Assembly: GCA_029243145.1 (NCBI GenBank)
Contig: JAQWSQ010000123.1
Coordinates: 1 to 64,000 of the forward strand
Direction of reading: 5' to 3'
DNA from: Planctomycetaceae bacterium
GTDB lineage: Bacteria > Planctomycetota > Planctomycetia > Planctomycetales > Planctomycetaceae
Length of the DNA: 64,000 nt
Below, piece by piece: positions 19,965 to 29,878 of this stretch; position 1 is the stretch's first letter; the number at the start of each line of letters is the position of its first letter. The notes beneath the pieces were generated by a model that ran no database searches, was not told the DNA's origin, and was given only the letters and a program-made list of their open reading frames with translations. A program made the translations under genes and the position numbers.

Positions 19965-20022
19965 ATGATATAAGTCTGCGGTTTTCGGGATGTTCAGTGA
20001 GTATTAATATTCTTGCCTACTG

Positions 20023-20069
20023 GCATGCCACCCTCTCTTCCTTTGGAGGAGAGGGCCGGGGTGAGGAGG
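20023..20069. repeat. Dispersed 47-bp palindromic repeat, copy 2
   Basis: Identical over all 47 bases to 1-47. It sits in the gap between the metal-binding lipoprotein gene and the ATPase gene, 21 nt from a second, inverted element of the same general family. Confidence 0.85.
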
Positions 20070-20090
20070 TGATCAATATCGATTCAACGA

Positions 20091-20139
20091 CCTCCTCATC
20101 CGCCCTATCGGGCACCTTCTCCTCCCGAGGAGGAGAAGG
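20091..20139. repeat. REP-like hairpin element, opposite orientation
   Basis: Starts CCTCCTCATCCGCCC and ends in a perfect 10-bp hairpin CCTTCTCCTC-CCGAG-GAGGAGAAGG (20115-20139). It forms a head-to-head pair with the 47-bp element just upstream, as REP-type elements often do. It may act as an attenuator between the genes for the binding protein and the ATPase. Confidence 0.7.
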
Positions 20140-20230
20140 ACTTCATCAACGCGGTTCCAAATTCATCACAAGTATGATTTTCATATGGACGGATAAGATC
20201 TCATCGGTTTGCGACTCAACCGTTTTGAGT

Positions 20231-24457: not shown

Positions 24458-25213
24458 ATGATAGTTTATCTTGTGACTCGGTCAACAACCGGCATCTTCT
24501 ACAATGCTTGTCCATTCACTCAACTCGGAGTCATGGTGACAGTTCCTAATTCGATGAGTCAATCTGCCATAGGATGTAAGTTCCTGGGTGTTCCGAGAAC
24601 CGCCGTGGCAGTGGCTGTCACTACCGTTGCATTGGATTTCGTCTGTGTTATCCAGAACATTGACGGACAGGTTCGCATCAGCATCTCTTTGCTCGCATTT
24701 GCATTGGCCGTTTATTTATCAGACGGTGATCACAAGTCGCTTGGACTACGTGCATCTCCTGTGCAGGGCTGGTCTTGCTGGATAAGTATGTCACTCAAAA
24801 TAGGCTGCGCGGTCGCAGTTTGTATTATTGTCGGCTTCGGCTTGTGGTCTATGCTGGGTAACGAACTCGAATTGGCTTTCACGCAACCATCGCAGGCATG
24901 GTCTAAATTCATACTGATGTGCTTCGTAGCCCCTACGCTTGAAGAGGCGGTCTATCGATTTGTTGCCTGCGGGCTCATAGCAGCGATCGTTGGCAACAAA
25001 CGTACGATCGTAGTCAACGGCTTATTATTCGGAATTCTGCATTTTTTGTATGGAAATCCCAGCCCGGAAAATATGATTGGTGGTTTTTTTCTTGCGTGGT
25101 CTTACTTGAAAAGTGAAACGATTCTTATGCCATTTCTGCTCCATAGTATCGGTAATTTTTTGGCACTCACCGGTCAAGTCGTTGGCTGGTACATACTTGG
25201 AAGTATTGCCTAG
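24458..25213 (+). CDS. CPBP-family intramembrane protease
   Basis: 251 residues from ATG 24458; ATG 24533 (MVTVPNSMSQ) is an equally possible start since neither has a clear ribosome-binding site. Six or so membrane helices. The Abi/CPBP motifs are present: EEAVYR (motif 1), FGILHF (motif 2) and a C-terminal HSIGN. These proteases resemble Rce1 and cut membrane substrates; the bacterial members are mostly of unknown role. Divergent from the sigma operon (209-nt gap, no clear element) and upstream of rnpB. Confidence 0.85.
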   Translation: MIVYLVTRSTTGIFYNACPFTQLGVMVTVPNSMSQSAIGCKFLGVPRTAVAVAVTTVALDFVCVIQNIDGQVRISISLLAFALAVYLSDGDHKSLGLRASPVQGWSCWISMSLKIGCAVAVCIIVGFGLWSMLGNELELAFTQPSQAWSKFILMCFVAPTLEEAVYRFVACGLIAAIVGNKRTIVVNGLLFGILHFLYGNPSPENMIGGFFLAWSYLKSETILMPFLLHSIGNFLALTGQVVGWYILGSIA

Positions 25214-25372
25214 AAATTCTTCATAACTTGATTGTGTGGCTGGGAATGACCGTCAGTTCCACCCAGCTTGCTTGATCGACGTTCAATCTGGCAACCGAGA
25301 ACGCTGAGACATCTCTCATCATCGCCATGGAATCGGCCATAACTCCGGATAGCTTATCTGGTGTCTGCTGGA

Positions 25373-25378
25373 TAGAAT
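25373..25378 (+). promoter_or_regulatory. Candidate -10 box for rnpB
   Basis: TAGAAT, 6 nt before the 5' end of the RNase P RNA. The -35 region (TAGCTT, 17 nt upstream) is weak. Confidence 0.4.
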
Positions 25379-25384
25379 GAAACT

Positions 25385-25762
<378 letters not shown>

Positions 25763-25941
25763 TCTTTTGAATTACTCCACACCATGGAGCCTATTGACGA
25801 TTTGTTCGGGAGTTTGTCGTTTTCGTCTGATGGTCATTGGCGGTCTACAGCAATGTTAGGCAGTTGATTTTCACGGAACATTCCGCTCAAGCTGCTAATG
25901 CTTGCCAGACGATTGAAGAAGATGACACATAGGTAAATTTG

Positions 25942-26341
25942 TCATTGACACCACGCTAGGCAGTTTCGCTTCACTCCTGAATAACTATTGCGACACTCCG
26001 TTTGATCTGCTTGAAATGTGAGACTACATTTATGATCACAGCCAGACAATGGGTTTTCTATGACGCAGTATTCCTCATCTCGAAATGTCAATACAAGCCA
26101 GCATCTTGCCATCTTGCACTTCTCCAGACACCGATTCTGATCTGCTTTTTTATTGGCAATACACCTGTCTATAAGTCTTCTCACCCGACGATAACATTCT
26201 GTCTCACAAATATCGCGATCATGGTCCGTCGTTGCTATTTGCCCTGCGTCTCCGCCATTGTTGGTCTACCGCAGTCATTGGAGTCAGCACGCATACCGTA
26301 AGTGTGATAAATACAAGCCTGAAGAGGATAGGATTAGTCAT
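25942..26341 (-). pseudogene. Frameshifted third member of the secreted cysteine-hairpin family
   Basis: ATG 26341 has AAAGG at good spacing and starts a signal peptide (MTNPILFRLVFITLTVCVL), but that frame stops at 26219. The next frame continues as ...GQIATTDHDRDICETEC and on to a stop at 25942. That frame contains two perfect C-x3-C-x10-C-x10-C-x3-C modules, the second ending NCLAWCQ. A stop (TAG, 26266-26268) closes the second frame upstream, so the shift lies within 26222-26268. Removing one base would give a protein of about 132 residues. Last of three tandem paralogues on the minus strand. Confidence 0.7.
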
Positions 26342-26408
26342 TACAACACCTTTTTGAATTGTTTCTTTGGATGCTGACAAGTGATTACGCTCTACAAAAC
26401 TCGGGGAA

Positions 26409-26816
26409 CTATCTAAAGAATTGTCCGCATAACCTTTTCCCAGAAAAGAAACGAGATGTACAGGAAGATTTTTTTCTTCGAAGTTCACGATCACATCTTG
26501 CCAAACAACGACCAGCCTCTTTCAGTGCGTCCTGCCATTTTGATCGATCACTGTCACTCCAATCACTATCAATTTCGTTGCGTACTATCTGGAGACTGTC
26601 GTCGCATTCAGTCCAACAACCATTATATTGCTGATCTGCGAACGTGCGGCAGCTCAGTAATTCTCGACGAACTTTCCTCAAGCACTCGGCCAGCTTCTCA
26701 TGATTATCAGGGTTGGGTAACTCGCTATCGAGATTCCCCTGCTGGTCTCCATAACCGGAACTTGCCAACAAAGTACATAAGGTCAACATCAGGAATGTTC
26801 GAAGCAGCATTTTCAT
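26409..26816 (-). CDS. Secreted cysteine-hairpin protein
   Basis: 135 residues. Signal peptide MKMLLRTFLMLTLCTLLASSGYG, then a short SELPNPDNHEK linker like its neighbour's. Cysteines follow a strict spacing: C-x10-C-x10-C-x3-C, then C-x3-C-x10-C-x10-C. Compared with its paralogues it lacks the first Cys of module 1 and the last Cys of module 2. That is what one would expect if those two pair with each other. The intervals are rich in charged residues and suit two helical hairpins held by disulfides in the periplasm. Function unknown; no known family recognised. Confidence 0.7.
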   Translation of the reverse strand: MKMLLRTFLMLTLCTLLASSGYGDQQGNLDSELPNPDNHEKLAECLRKVRRELLSCRTFADQQYNGCWTECDDSLQIVRNEIDSDWSDSDRSKWQDALKEAGRCLARCDRELRRKKSSCTSRFFSGKRLCGQFFR

Positions 26817-26931
26817 TGTCGTCGTTCCATTGAATCAGGAGGGAATAAATATCTCACGATTCAAATCAGGATCATTGAGAGCACATGAGACATAACAGTC
26901 GAGTTTTGTCCTACTACGCGAGTCAAGAACT

Positions 26932-27384
26932 TCATCTTCCGAAAGAACATTTTATGATTTGGCATAAAGTGATATCGGAATGGTATAGACTTTGTGAGTT
27001 ACATATTTTCATTTCTTTTTCGTAGTCTTCCCGACAATCATTCGGGCAATCTGGGTCAGGCTTTCCTTCACCCCGGCAACCCAGTAACGAACCTAATCCA
27101 CCCTCTCCATGCCACAGCCACCATCTCGAAGTTGATTGACAATAAGCGGGTTTACCGGTCGCACAATTCGAAACACAATCGTCACGTTTTCTGGTGGCTC
27201 TCCTTCTACAGTTTACTTGAGTTTGATCAGCTTCTTCTATGCATCTCGAGTAGCAGTTTTCGACTGGTTTCTTATTGTCTGGATTCGGTGAATCGACATC
27301 CTGTATACTGCCCGCACCGTGAGACGTGGAAACGACCAGAGATACAATCGAAGTGACAATGAGAGATCTGAGAATATGTTTCAT
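26932..27384 (-). CDS. Secreted cysteine-hairpin protein
   Basis: 150 residues, AAAGG 8 nt before ATG 27384. Signal peptide MKHILRSLIVTSIVSLVVSTSHG, linker DSPNPDNKK, then C-x3-C-x10-C-x10-C-x3-C (CYSRC ... CVSNC). A Trp/Gly-rich insert with three further Cys follows, then a second module C-x3-C-x10-C-x12-C-x4-C. It belongs with the next two genes downstream to one tandem family. Likely exported and disulfide-bonded. No match to a known domain is recalled. The surrounding DNA looks more AT-rich than the flanking genes. Confidence 0.7.
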   Translation of the reverse strand: MKHILRSLIVTSIVSLVVSTSHGAGSIQDVDSPNPDNKKPVENCYSRCIEEADQTQVNCRRRATRKRDDCVSNCATGKPAYCQSTSRWWLWHGEGGLGSLLGCRGEGKPDPDCPNDCREDYEKEMKICNSQSLYHSDITLCQIIKCSFGR

Positions 27385-27438
27385 TACATACCTTTCATCA
27401 AATTTGAATCGTTGGCAAAATAAATAGTCACAGCAAGA

Positions 27439-27663
27439 TCATGATCGAGAACAACCCCGAAATGAGAACAGCACGATGCTCGCGATTTCTTTGGCTCGTT
27501 CTGCTTTTTTTCTTGTTTCATTTCGCTTCTCTTGCTGGGCGCAATAACCGGGACCACAGGGGAGTCGCCCTGCTTCCGGGTTACTGAGGTTGCATGAACA
27601 GGAACGGAATCCTGCGTGCACAGATGAGCCACCGGGAGAATTTTGGCCTGTGTCATCAGTCAT
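27439..27663 (-). CDS. Doubtful small ORF upstream of the cysteine-rich genes
   Basis: 74 codons with five Cys in the first half (CSCN..., LPCGPGYC) and a charged helix-like end, but no signal peptide and not the family spacing. Another frame, 27384-27656, encodes 90 residues and ends on TAATG overlapping the next start. At most one is real. This could equally be the leader of the cysteine-rich genes. Confidence 0.2.
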   Translation of the reverse strand: MTDDTGQNSPGGSSVHAGFRSCSCNLSNPEAGRLPCGPGYCAQQEKRNETRKKAERAKEIASIVLFSFRGCSRS

Positions 27664-27823: not shown

Positions 27824-28273
27824 ATGACGACTTTGAACATCGGCGATATGATCGAGAATGCTGCCGTGATTTGTCACGATGCAGGAATTTCGCAGACCAT
27901 CGAAATCATGACGGCCCACCAGTGTGACCGCGTTTATGTGACCGATGAGGCCGGTTTGGTTTCCAGCGTCATTTGCGATTATCGATTGCTCAAGGCGCTG
28001 GTTCGAGGCCAGCTTGCAAGCTGTTCGCTGAGTGATCTTGCATCACCACTGTCAGAAACTTTGCATCCTAATCAGTCGCTTTCTCAAGCGGCTGTTTTAT
28101 TTCGTAGTGGCTATGCGACTGAAATACCGGTGTTCGAGTCTCACCAATTTTTGGGAGTCGTCCGGCGCAAAGACCTTCTCGCCACACTCTTTAATTGCGA
28201 AGAAATTGCGGGACCGACAGCAGGCTCTGTTCTTACGGGGCTCAACAATCAGCAAACGAGGAAAATCGGATAA
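27824..28273 (+). CDS. CBS-domain protein
   Basis: 149 residues from ATG 27824. Two CBS motifs: one about residues 10-70 (AVICHDAGISQTIEIMTAHQCDRVYVTDEAG, then VICDYRLLKAL) and one about 75-135 (LHPNQSLSQAAVLFRSGYATEIPV, GVVRRKDLLATLF). A paired CBS module alone, with no enzyme attached, usually senses adenine nucleotides and acts on a partner protein; the partner is unknown. It converges with the thioredoxin-protease gene, with 15 nt between stops. Confidence 0.85.
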   Translation: MTTLNIGDMIENAAVICHDAGISQTIEIMTAHQCDRVYVTDEAGLVSSVICDYRLLKALVRGQLASCSLSDLASPLSETLHPNQSLSQAAVLFRSGYATEIPVFESHQFLGVVRRKDLLATLFNCEEIAGPTAGSVLTGLNNQQTRKIG

Positions 28274-28288
28274 CTGCTACCGAGCCGC

Positions 28289-29878
28289 TTATTGTGCCCA
28301 AACGGGTGTTTCGGAGCGAGAGCTTGAATTCACTGGTTGCAAAGATCTGCCCGTCTCCAGCAAATTTTCCCACTTCAATGTTCGGCCAGCTTGAAAATCT
28401 GCCGCCGTCAGAGAGTCGCCCGTGGAAGCCACTTTTCGTTGGCTGGTTGTTGTCGAGAGTTTTCTTTCCGCAGGAACGGAGACACGAGTTGCTATCCGTT
28501 CGGGAAGCTCGGGACGATTACTGATCAATATCTGGTATCCACTGGCTTCTTGCGAATCGGGTTCGATGCAGATTGTGACTCCCGTTTGTACGGAAGACTG
28601 CAACGCCGTTGCGATGGCGTCGACTTCGTTCGGAGTCAAAACATGAGGCGTTTTTTCCAGGCCGCGTGTTGATCGGGGCTCTAATTTCTCCAACGGTGTT
28701 TCCATGGCTACAGGCATCGCTTTCGCGACCGGTTTTGTCTCGGCGGCTTTTGCGATCATGTCGGCAGGTCCACGATACAATGCGGAGAGTGATGCGGCAT
28801 CCAGCATTTTGTAAATCTCTTTGAGTCCCGCATAGAGGCCAGAATTTTTTTCGCGATCAGCCGCCATACAGATTCCGATCAATTCACCCGCACGGTTAAA
28901 CAATCCGCCACCGGATCGTCCAGAGACGGGGGCTTGCGTGCACTCGATAATGCTCGATCCCACAAACTGATCAACCGATTGAATAAACATTTGCCAGCGT
29001 GTGGGTGGTTCACCATTCCCACAACCCACACTGTAGACCAAGTCGCGTGGACGAATCATTTGAGGGTCGGAAGCAATTTTAATGGCAGGTAACACGCGAT
29101 TCGGTTTGATCACCAGCAAGCCGACATCGCCTTTATCATCAAAACGGATCAGATTTCCTTGCCAAGTCGTCGGCTCTTCTCCTTCAAAATAGTCCACAGA
29201 AATGCGAGTGTTCTGATCGCTGCCTCGGAAAATATGCCCGCAAGTGATAATCAATGTGTAAGCGGATCGGCTTTCGATGATCGTTCCCGTGCCAAAATTG
29301 ACACTGCCGCCTTGATTGACGCGTAACCGAACGGCGGCCTGCATTGGCTGACTGGTGATGGGTCCACGTTCGTTGGTCGTCGAGACGATGTTGGCGTCTT
29401 CAGGTTCTGGTTGATCGGCATTCTGACCACGAACGGTTTCAATGTCATCAGGGCTGATCTCTTTACTCTTTCCTAGAAACGGAATCGGGATTCCTCGTCG
29501 GAATAAAGGTCGATCCTCTGCGGCGATTTGTAGGTCCACTTCCTTGGAGGAAGTCTTGAACGAATCTCCTCGCGGAATTCTTGCCATTAATTTCGCAAGA
29601 GTAATTTCGGATTGAGGGCCGATCAATCGTTGCACCGGCTTTTCATTGATGACGAGAATAAATTGCGGAATCGATTCGACTCCATATTTTGCCGCCAACT
29701 CGGGGTGCTTCTCGACATCGACTTTGCGAATCGGATAGCCCTTCCGTATCAGTTTCTCAACCGTGGGTGCCATCGATTGGCAGGGACCGCAATAACTCGC
29801 GGTAAAGTCGAGCAATTCCCCTTGCGGAGCGCCGCCGAGGGAGGAAAGTGTGATTAACAATGCGGATAACGAATTCAT
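28289..29878 (-). CDS. Thioredoxin-trypsin-like protease fusion
   Basis: 529 residues from ATG 29878 (AGGAGA upstream); a start 20 codons earlier is possible but lacks that site. A short signal-like N-terminus leads to a thioredoxin fold with active site ASYCGPC (about residue 30) and the cis-Pro loop ESIPQFI. A linker follows, then a trypsin-like serine protease: His in CGHIF, Asp in DKGDVGLLVI and Ser in SGRSGGGLF, the Degp/trypsin layout. A low-complexity tail ends the protein. Probably exported; it may reduce or recognise disulfide-bonded substrates before cleavage, which is inference. It lies near the cysteine-rich secreted proteins but not in one operon. Confidence 0.82.
   Translation of the reverse strand: MNSLSALLITLSSLGGAPQGELLDFTASYCGPCQSMAPTVEKLIRKGYPIRKVDVEKHPELAAKYGVESIPQFILVINEKPVQRLIGPQSEITLAKLMARIPRGDSFKTSSKEVDLQIAAEDRPLFRRGIPIPFLGKSKEISPDDIETVRGQNADQPEPEDANIVSTTNERGPITSQPMQAAVRLRVNQGGSVNFGTGTIIESRSAYTLIITCGHIFRGSDQNTRISVDYFEGEEPTTWQGNLIRFDDKGDVGLLVIKPNRVLPAIKIASDPQMIRPRDLVYSVGCGNGEPPTRWQMFIQSVDQFVGSSIIECTQAPVSGRSGGGLFNRAGELIGICMAADREKNSGLYAGLKEIYKMLDAASLSALYRGPADMIAKAAETKPVAKAMPVAMETPLEKLEPRSTRGLEKTPHVLTPNEVDAIATALQSSVQTGVTICIEPDSQEASGYQILISNRPELPERIATRVSVPAERKLSTTTSQRKVASTGDSLTAADFQAGRTLKWENLLETGRSLQPVNSSSRSETPVWAQ

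What the first reader, a model, noticed from the sequence alone, without database searches (positions are those of the whole stretch)
25942..27384. Tandem family of secreted proteins with a strict C-x3-C-x10-C-x10-C-x3-C module
Three neighbouring minus-strand genes encode short exported proteins (signal peptide, SPNPDN/LPNPDN-like linker in two). The cysteines of module 1 in the first gene and both modules in the broken third gene fit C-x3-C-x10-C-x10-C-x3-C exactly. The middle gene lacks the first Cys of module 1 and the last Cys of module 2, as if those two pair. The spacing suits paired helices stapled by disulfides, comparable to but different from twin CX3C or CX9C proteins. I know of no named family with this pattern, so it may be undescribed. 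The role could be a surface or periplasmic binding scaffold, or a toxin-like peptide.
Basis: partly seen in the sequence, partly recalled or inferred. Interest (0 to 1): 0.75.

Follow-up and report, generated by a model that had tools for sequence, protein, structure and literature searches.

The report
Secreted disulfide-ladder helical hairpin proteins
A planctomycete carries three neighbouring, strongly diverged genes for small secreted proteins whose cysteines are laid out as a mirror image, as expected if each protein is two long helices clipped together by a ladder of disulfide bonds; no close relative was found in the genomes searched, the function is unknown, and one of the three genes is broken by a leftover piece of a mobile element.

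Summary
Genes A (26932-27384), B (26409-26816) and C (25942-26341), all on the minus strand, encode small Sec-type exported proteins. The spacing C-x3-C-x10-C-x10-C-x3-C occurs exactly three times in the 5.2 Mb genome, all here. The interpretation changes: not two four-Cys hairpins per protein, but probably one antiparallel hairpin of two long helices joined by four to six nested disulfides. In B all four pairs have position sums of exactly 175; in C five of six sum to 126. The Cys lost in B are one mirror pair. AlphaFold2 makes A module 1 one helix (residues 35-76). Gene C is frameshifted at a 25-bp fragment identical to the end of a multicopy insertion sequence. The cluster is AT-richer than its flanks and was not found in two congeners. 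No orthologue was found by profile search of 170 family, 398 class and 392 phylum genomes. One distant planctomycete encodes a secreted protein with 11 tandem C-x3-C-x10-C-x9/10-C-x10-C-x3-C units, the same rung spacing, in no Pfam or NCBIfam family; homology is unproven. Function remains a guess: a rigid exported binding or antagonism scaffold.

The parts
26932..27384 (-). Gene A, 150 aa, signal peptide, SPNPDN linker, 12 mature Cys
   Evidence: SD-like AAAGGT upstream
27163..27255 (-). A module 1, exact C-x3-C-x10-C-x10-C-x3-C; inside predicted helix 35-76
26947..27048 (-). A module 2, C-x3-C-x10-C-x12-C-x4-C; predicted helices 113-128 and 131-149
26409..26816 (-). Gene B, 135 aa, signal peptide, LPNPDN linker, 8 mature Cys in exact mirror order (each pair sums to 175)
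26604..26696 (-). B module 1, first Cys missing
26415..26507 (-). B module 2, last Cys missing
26219..26341 (-). Gene C, signal-peptide reading frame, ends at a stop
26249..26273 (+). 25-bp end of a multicopy insertion sequence, at the frame break of gene C
25942..26238 (-). Gene C, Cys-module reading frame, 12 Cys, five of six mirror pairs sum to 126
26116..26208 (-). C module 1, exact pattern
25948..26040 (-). C module 2, exact pattern

Best explanation
A, B and C are diverged tandem copies of a small exported protein. Each chain is sent through the Sec pathway and loses its signal peptide; a short acidic stretch remains before the first Cys. Two segments of about 31 residues then form two antiparallel helices joined by a variable loop. 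Cys at helix positions 0, 4, 15, 26 and 30 (hendecad-like, 11 residues = three turns) lie on one face and pair in nested order (C1-C5', C2-C4', C3-C3', C4-C2', C5-C1'; plus a loop pair in A and C), giving a rigid disulfide-laddered hairpin after oxidation in the periplasm or outside. The Cys frame is fixed while the exposed, highly charged surface varies strongly between copies, so the hairpin most likely serves as a protease-resistant exported scaffold whose surface binds something (a neighbour cell, an envelope component or a ligand). Shown: genes, signal-peptide-like starts, Cys geometry, mirror symmetry, predicted helices. Inferred: the disulfides, the nesting, the location and the binding role (the last is the weakest step, about 0.3 on its own).
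For: Exact pattern three times in the genome, all here; no shuffle of 100,000 gives the two-module core. Cys positions lie on one helix face (mean vector 0.94 at 98.2 degrees per residue; about 1e-4 of random placements do as well). Mirror sums: B 175 four times; C 126 five of six; A 185-190. B lost exactly one mirror pair. Mature Cys counts are even in all three (12, 8, 12). AlphaFold2: A residues 35-76 one helix, pLDDT block means 80, 91, 91, 68 from residue 41; second segment helices 113-128 and 131-149, block means 82, 91, 80, 68 from residue 111. Independent case: the G735 protein, signal peptide plus 11 regex-exact units C-x3-C-x10-C-x9/10-C-x10-C-x3-C, palindromic around a GGDP-type turn, same 4 and 11 rung spacing; its non-Cys hydrophobics share the Cys face (p 0.014 and 0.033).
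Against: No experimental disulfide or structure. Only two weak models: B folded alone is several shorter helices (mean pLDDT 67) and A has mean pLDDT 63; the tool returns no coordinates, so Cys-Cys distances were not measured. Because the five-Cys module is itself palindromic, a tandem duplication also gives most of the mirror symmetry; only B (and the loop Cys) separate the two. The hydrophobic-face test on window modules is not significant (r 0.24, p 0.12). A module 2 is out of register. Three orphan genes are a thin basis for a function.
Confidence: 0.55

Rival explanations
1. Metal-binding helical bundle: reduced Cys lining a four-helix bundle bind Cu(I) or another soft metal, working like the exported copper storage proteins.
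For: The single-sequence model of B is all helical and its best PDB neighbours include Streptomyces lividans copper storage protein (prob 0.92-0.98, TM 0.52-0.55). Exported Csp1-type proteins exist (PMC7558416).
Against: Foldseek E 0.3-0.8, not significant; the model of A does not hit Csp. No Pfam DUF326 hit. A DUF326 protein fetched here (L088) has C-x2-C and C-x3-C series; the window family has no C-x2-C. Csp1 uses a Tat signal (PMC7558416); these starts lack a twin Arg. Even, mirror-paired Cys favour disulfides.
Confidence: 0.12
2. Two independent alpha-hairpins per protein, each five-Cys module folding back on itself as in plant alpha-hairpinins (C1-C5, C2-C4), central Cys free or linking the modules.
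For: C-x3-C ends resemble the hairpinin Cys motif CX3C-X4-20-CX3C (PMC11591084); the module is palindromic; B alone is predicted with helix breaks near residues 56 and 64-66.
Against: The spacer is 21 residues with a Cys in its middle; A module 1 is predicted as one unbroken helix; B would be left with unpaired Cys inside each module, and its losses match a mirror pair instead.
Confidence: 0.15
3. Toxin-like or bacteriocin-like secreted peptides for competition between bacteria, accompanied by the neighbouring CPBP (Rce1-like) membrane protease as processing or immunity factor. This is a reading of the function and can be true together with the ladder fold.
For: Acidic leader followed by a more basic Cys region, tandem diverged copies, species-restricted, rearranged slot; a CPBP protease gene (24458-25213) on the other side of rnpB also lies outside the DNA matched in the congeners.
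Against: CPBP proteases are common and this gene is on the other strand across rnpB; no dedicated exporter was seen next to the genes; net charge of the mature chains is near neutral.
Confidence: 0.15
4. Structural, disulfide-cross-linked component of the cell envelope.
For: Secreted, Cys-rich, helical rods; cystine-rich envelope proteins are known in the related Chlamydiae (own knowledge).
Against: Not found in the sister species, so not a core envelope part; all mature Cys numbers are even and self-paired by symmetry.
Confidence: 0.1
5. Decaying or non-functional orphan ORFs.
For: One of three copies is broken by an insertion-sequence remnant; low GC and flat codon-position GC; no orthologues.
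Against: Cys conserved at 23-24% overall identity; SD-like sites at A and C; signal peptides kept in all three.
Confidence: 0.1

Closest known systems
Plant alpha-hairpinins (CX3C-Xn-CX3C antimicrobial peptides)
   Same: Helix-loop-helix held by two disulfides, i/i+4 Cys pairs at the ends of the motif; small secreted; sequences diverge while Cys stay (PMC11591084).
   Different: Hairpinins have 4 (sometimes 6) Cys in a short hairpin with spacer 4-20; here 8-12 Cys, 10-residue spacers, helices of about 31-40 residues, up to six rungs; bacterial.
Twin CX9C (CHCH) and twin CX3C (small Tim) proteins
   Same: Helical hairpins with two inter-helix disulfides (own knowledge; CHCHD4 review PMC12114033 listed).
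   Different: Two rungs, spacing 9 or 3 only, mitochondrial; no Pfam hit here.
Copper storage proteins Csp1/Csp3 (DUF326)
   Same: Small, all-helical, Cys-rich; exported versions exist.
   Different: Cys spacing with C-x2-C/C-x3-C series, reduced thiols, Tat export; membership not met.
G735 tandem hairpin protein (L237/L238, same phylum, uncharacterised)
   Same: Secreted; 4- and 11-residue Cys rung spacing in mirror order; the A1 profile finds it (E 4.9e-4 for one genome).
   Different: 11 short three-rung hairpins in one chain with GGDP-like turns and a weak dockerin-like C-terminus; homology not proven.

Membership tests
alpha-hairpinins | C1X3C2-X4-20-C3X3C4 with C-free spacer | tested here: not met
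   spacer 21 residues with a central Cys (motif from PMC11591084)
alpha-hairpinins | disulfides C1-C4 and C2-C3 | not testable with these tools
   needs chemistry; mirror symmetry favours pairing between modules
CHCH / small Tim | match to the CHCH, Cmc1 or Tim10/DDP Pfam models | tested here: not met
   no such hit at E up to 10
Copper storage proteins | DUF326 Pfam match and C-x2-C-rich spacing | tested here: not met
   contrast L088
Copper storage proteins | four-helix bundle fold | tested here: inconclusive
   B model weakly similar (E 0.3-0.8), A model not
Copper storage proteins | binds Cu(I) with reduced thiols | not testable with these tools
   none
Any Pfam, NCBIfam or PHROGs family | profile match above cut-off | tested here: not met
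G735-type tandem hairpins | palindromic C-x3-C-x10-C-turn-C-x10-C-x3-C unit | tested here: not met
   window family has C-x3-C-x10-C-x10-C-x3-C twice instead; shared rung spacing only

The most novel reading that the evidence does not exclude
The window family and the G735 tandem protein belong to an undescribed class of exported planctomycete all-alpha proteins whose core is a disulfide ladder with rungs 4 and 11 residues apart on antiparallel helices, used as a modular rigid rod.
Probability: 0.35. Interest if true: 0.7.

Novelty: new variant of a known kind. Interest (0 to 1): 0.5.

Why it matters
Disulfide-stapled helical hairpins are known mostly from plants, venoms and mitochondria with two or three rungs. 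A bacterial version with up to six rungs, whose spacing follows the 11-residue helix repeat, would be a new stable scaffold and gives a directly testable disulfide map. The same geometry repeated in tandem in a distant planctomycete protein suggests that it is a reusable architecture rather than a curiosity of one locus.

Tried and rejected
Direct homology searches with A and B in 40 relatives: only self hits or chance-level hits, several with stops. Whole-genome DNA pattern in 40 relatives: background-level hits, many in CTG/TTG repeats. Profile hits in G091, G182, G273, G331, G381 rejected: in-frame stops or no Cys frame. Module profile in 392 phylum genomes: no relative. Peptide-word scan of GTDB contigs, viral contigs, phages and plasmids: nothing. 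PDB sequence search: nothing. Fold search: no significant match. Literature for the spacing or for 'disulfide/cystine ladder': mostly theta-defensins and other non-helical or unrelated uses, judged from titles and abstracts. Assembly indel as cause of the gene C break: less likely than the insertion-sequence end found there, but not excluded. The broken gene was described, not mended.

Full report
Observation. Three minus-strand genes lie between rnpB (25389-25762) and a CBS-domain gene (about 27826-28273). A is 150 aa, B 135 aa, C is split over two frames: a signal-peptide frame starting at ATG 26341 and a Cys frame open from 26238 to 25942. A and C have Shine-Dalgarno-like sites just upstream. 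All have a start and hydrophobic core typical of Sec signals (read by eye; no signal-peptide predictor was available).

The spacing is not chance. C-x3-C-x10-C-x10-C-x3-C, searched as DNA over the whole genome, occurs three times, all in this 1.4 kb, and never in the reversed control. Shuffling the residues of A, B and C 100,000 times gave a single module 34, 3 and 49 times and the two-module core never. Overall identity to A is only 23-24% while the Cys columns stay.

Geometry. On a helix at 98.2 degrees per residue, positions 0, 4, 15, 26 and 30 point the same way (mean vector 0.94; about 1 in 10,000 random placements do as well). Over the full chains the Cys are mirror images: B pairs sum to 175 four times, C pairs to 126 five times of six, A to 185-190. 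Random placement gives the B result in 6 of 200,000 draws and the C result in 4, but a duplicated palindromic module would give most of it too. B breaks the tie: its two missing Cys are mirror partners, not the same position in both modules. The extra loop Cys of A and C also come as one pair each. Mature Cys counts are 12, 8 and 12.

Structure. AlphaFold2 on A with the three-row alignment gives one helix from 35 to 76 covering all five module-1 Cys (block pLDDT 80, 91, 91, 68) and helices 113-128 and 131-149 for module 2; loop and leader are unreliable. B alone gives shorter helices at mean pLDDT 67. Foldseek finds no significant match for either. This is inference from symmetry and from low-to-medium confidence models.

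Distribution. Profile searches of 170 family, 398 class and 392 phylum genomes (overlapping samples) found no orthologue, nor did a module profile, phages, plasmids, viral contigs or a peptide-word scan of GTDB contigs. The proteins match nothing in Pfam, NCBIfam or PHROGs.

A distant architecture match. The phylum search hit G735 (E 4.9e-4 for one genome; about 0.2 such hits expected over 392 genomes). Its protein has a signal peptide, 11 regex-exact tandem units C-x3-C-x10-C-x9/10-C-x10-C-x3-C with a GGDP-type turn, and a weak dockerin match below the Pfam cut-off. It matches no NCBIfam model. Hydrophobic residues fall on the Cys face (p 0.014 and 0.033). The spacing 3-10-turn-10-3 is what a three-rung antiparallel hairpin needs, and uses the same 4 and 11 steps as the window family. 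Whether the two are homologous or convergent cannot be told here.

Locus history. In the sister genome G002 (86% DNA identity from 27637 onward) the slot between the CBS gene and rnpB holds a zinc-ribbon-like ORF and a Ser/Thr kinase-like gene (named from the sequence, not from a profile). G001 has the kinase orthologue next to the same flank. In G000 the best matches to that kinase are only 44% identical, and secDF, next to rnpB in G002, lies 68 kb away. The left flank maps to other contigs in both congeners. The cluster is AT-rich (GC 0.43-0.44 against about 0.50-0.52). It therefore sits at a rearranged junction and is either newly acquired or newly evolved.

Gene C. The DNA 26249-26273 is identical over 25 bp to the outer end of a repeat found at many places and contig ends in G000 and G002, with two main inner flanks, as expected for the two ends of one insertion sequence. 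It lies exactly between the two frames of gene C; the ATG and the first module Cys are out of frame by one. An IS3-type transposase is suggested by the end of the reading frame next to one repeat, from memory only.

Function. Nothing here demonstrates one. Fixed Cys frame with divergent charged surface, export and restriction to one species fit a rigid exported binder or antagonism factor better than a core envelope part; metal storage is less likely because the Csp features tested were not met.

Noticed in passing
L237 / L238 (G735:C738, ORF from L238:5255): Uncharacterised secreted planctomycete protein with 11 exact tandem C-x3-C-x10-C-x9/10-C-x10-C-x3-C units with GGDP-like turns and a weak dockerin-like C-terminus; no Pfam match for the repeats and no NCBIfam match.
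   Followed up: partly
window 26249-26273; L207-L230: 25-bp insertion-sequence end inside gene C; the same terminal repeat sits at many contig ends and as partial copies in G000 and G002.
   Followed up: partly
window 25348-27637 against L188 and L189: Synteny break at rnpB: the sister species has a zinc-ribbon-like ORF and a Ser/Thr kinase-like gene in the slot of the Cys genes, and secDF lies 68 kb away in G000.
   Followed up: partly
window 24458-25213: CPBP/Rce1-like membrane protease gene that lies outside the DNA matched in the two congeners, on the other side of rnpB from the Cys genes.
   Followed up: no
window 28289-29878: Thioredoxin domain fused to a trypsin-like protease domain, conserved in the genus (62-90% identity).
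   Followed up: no
window 20000-20216: Dispersed repeat of about 50-200 bp with many copies in G000, G001 and G002.
   Followed up: no
L129 (Phycisphaerae), L141 (Desulforhopalus): Proteins with runs of C-x3-C-x6 (an 11-residue Cys repeat), another possible Cys-on-one-helix-face design.
   Followed up: no
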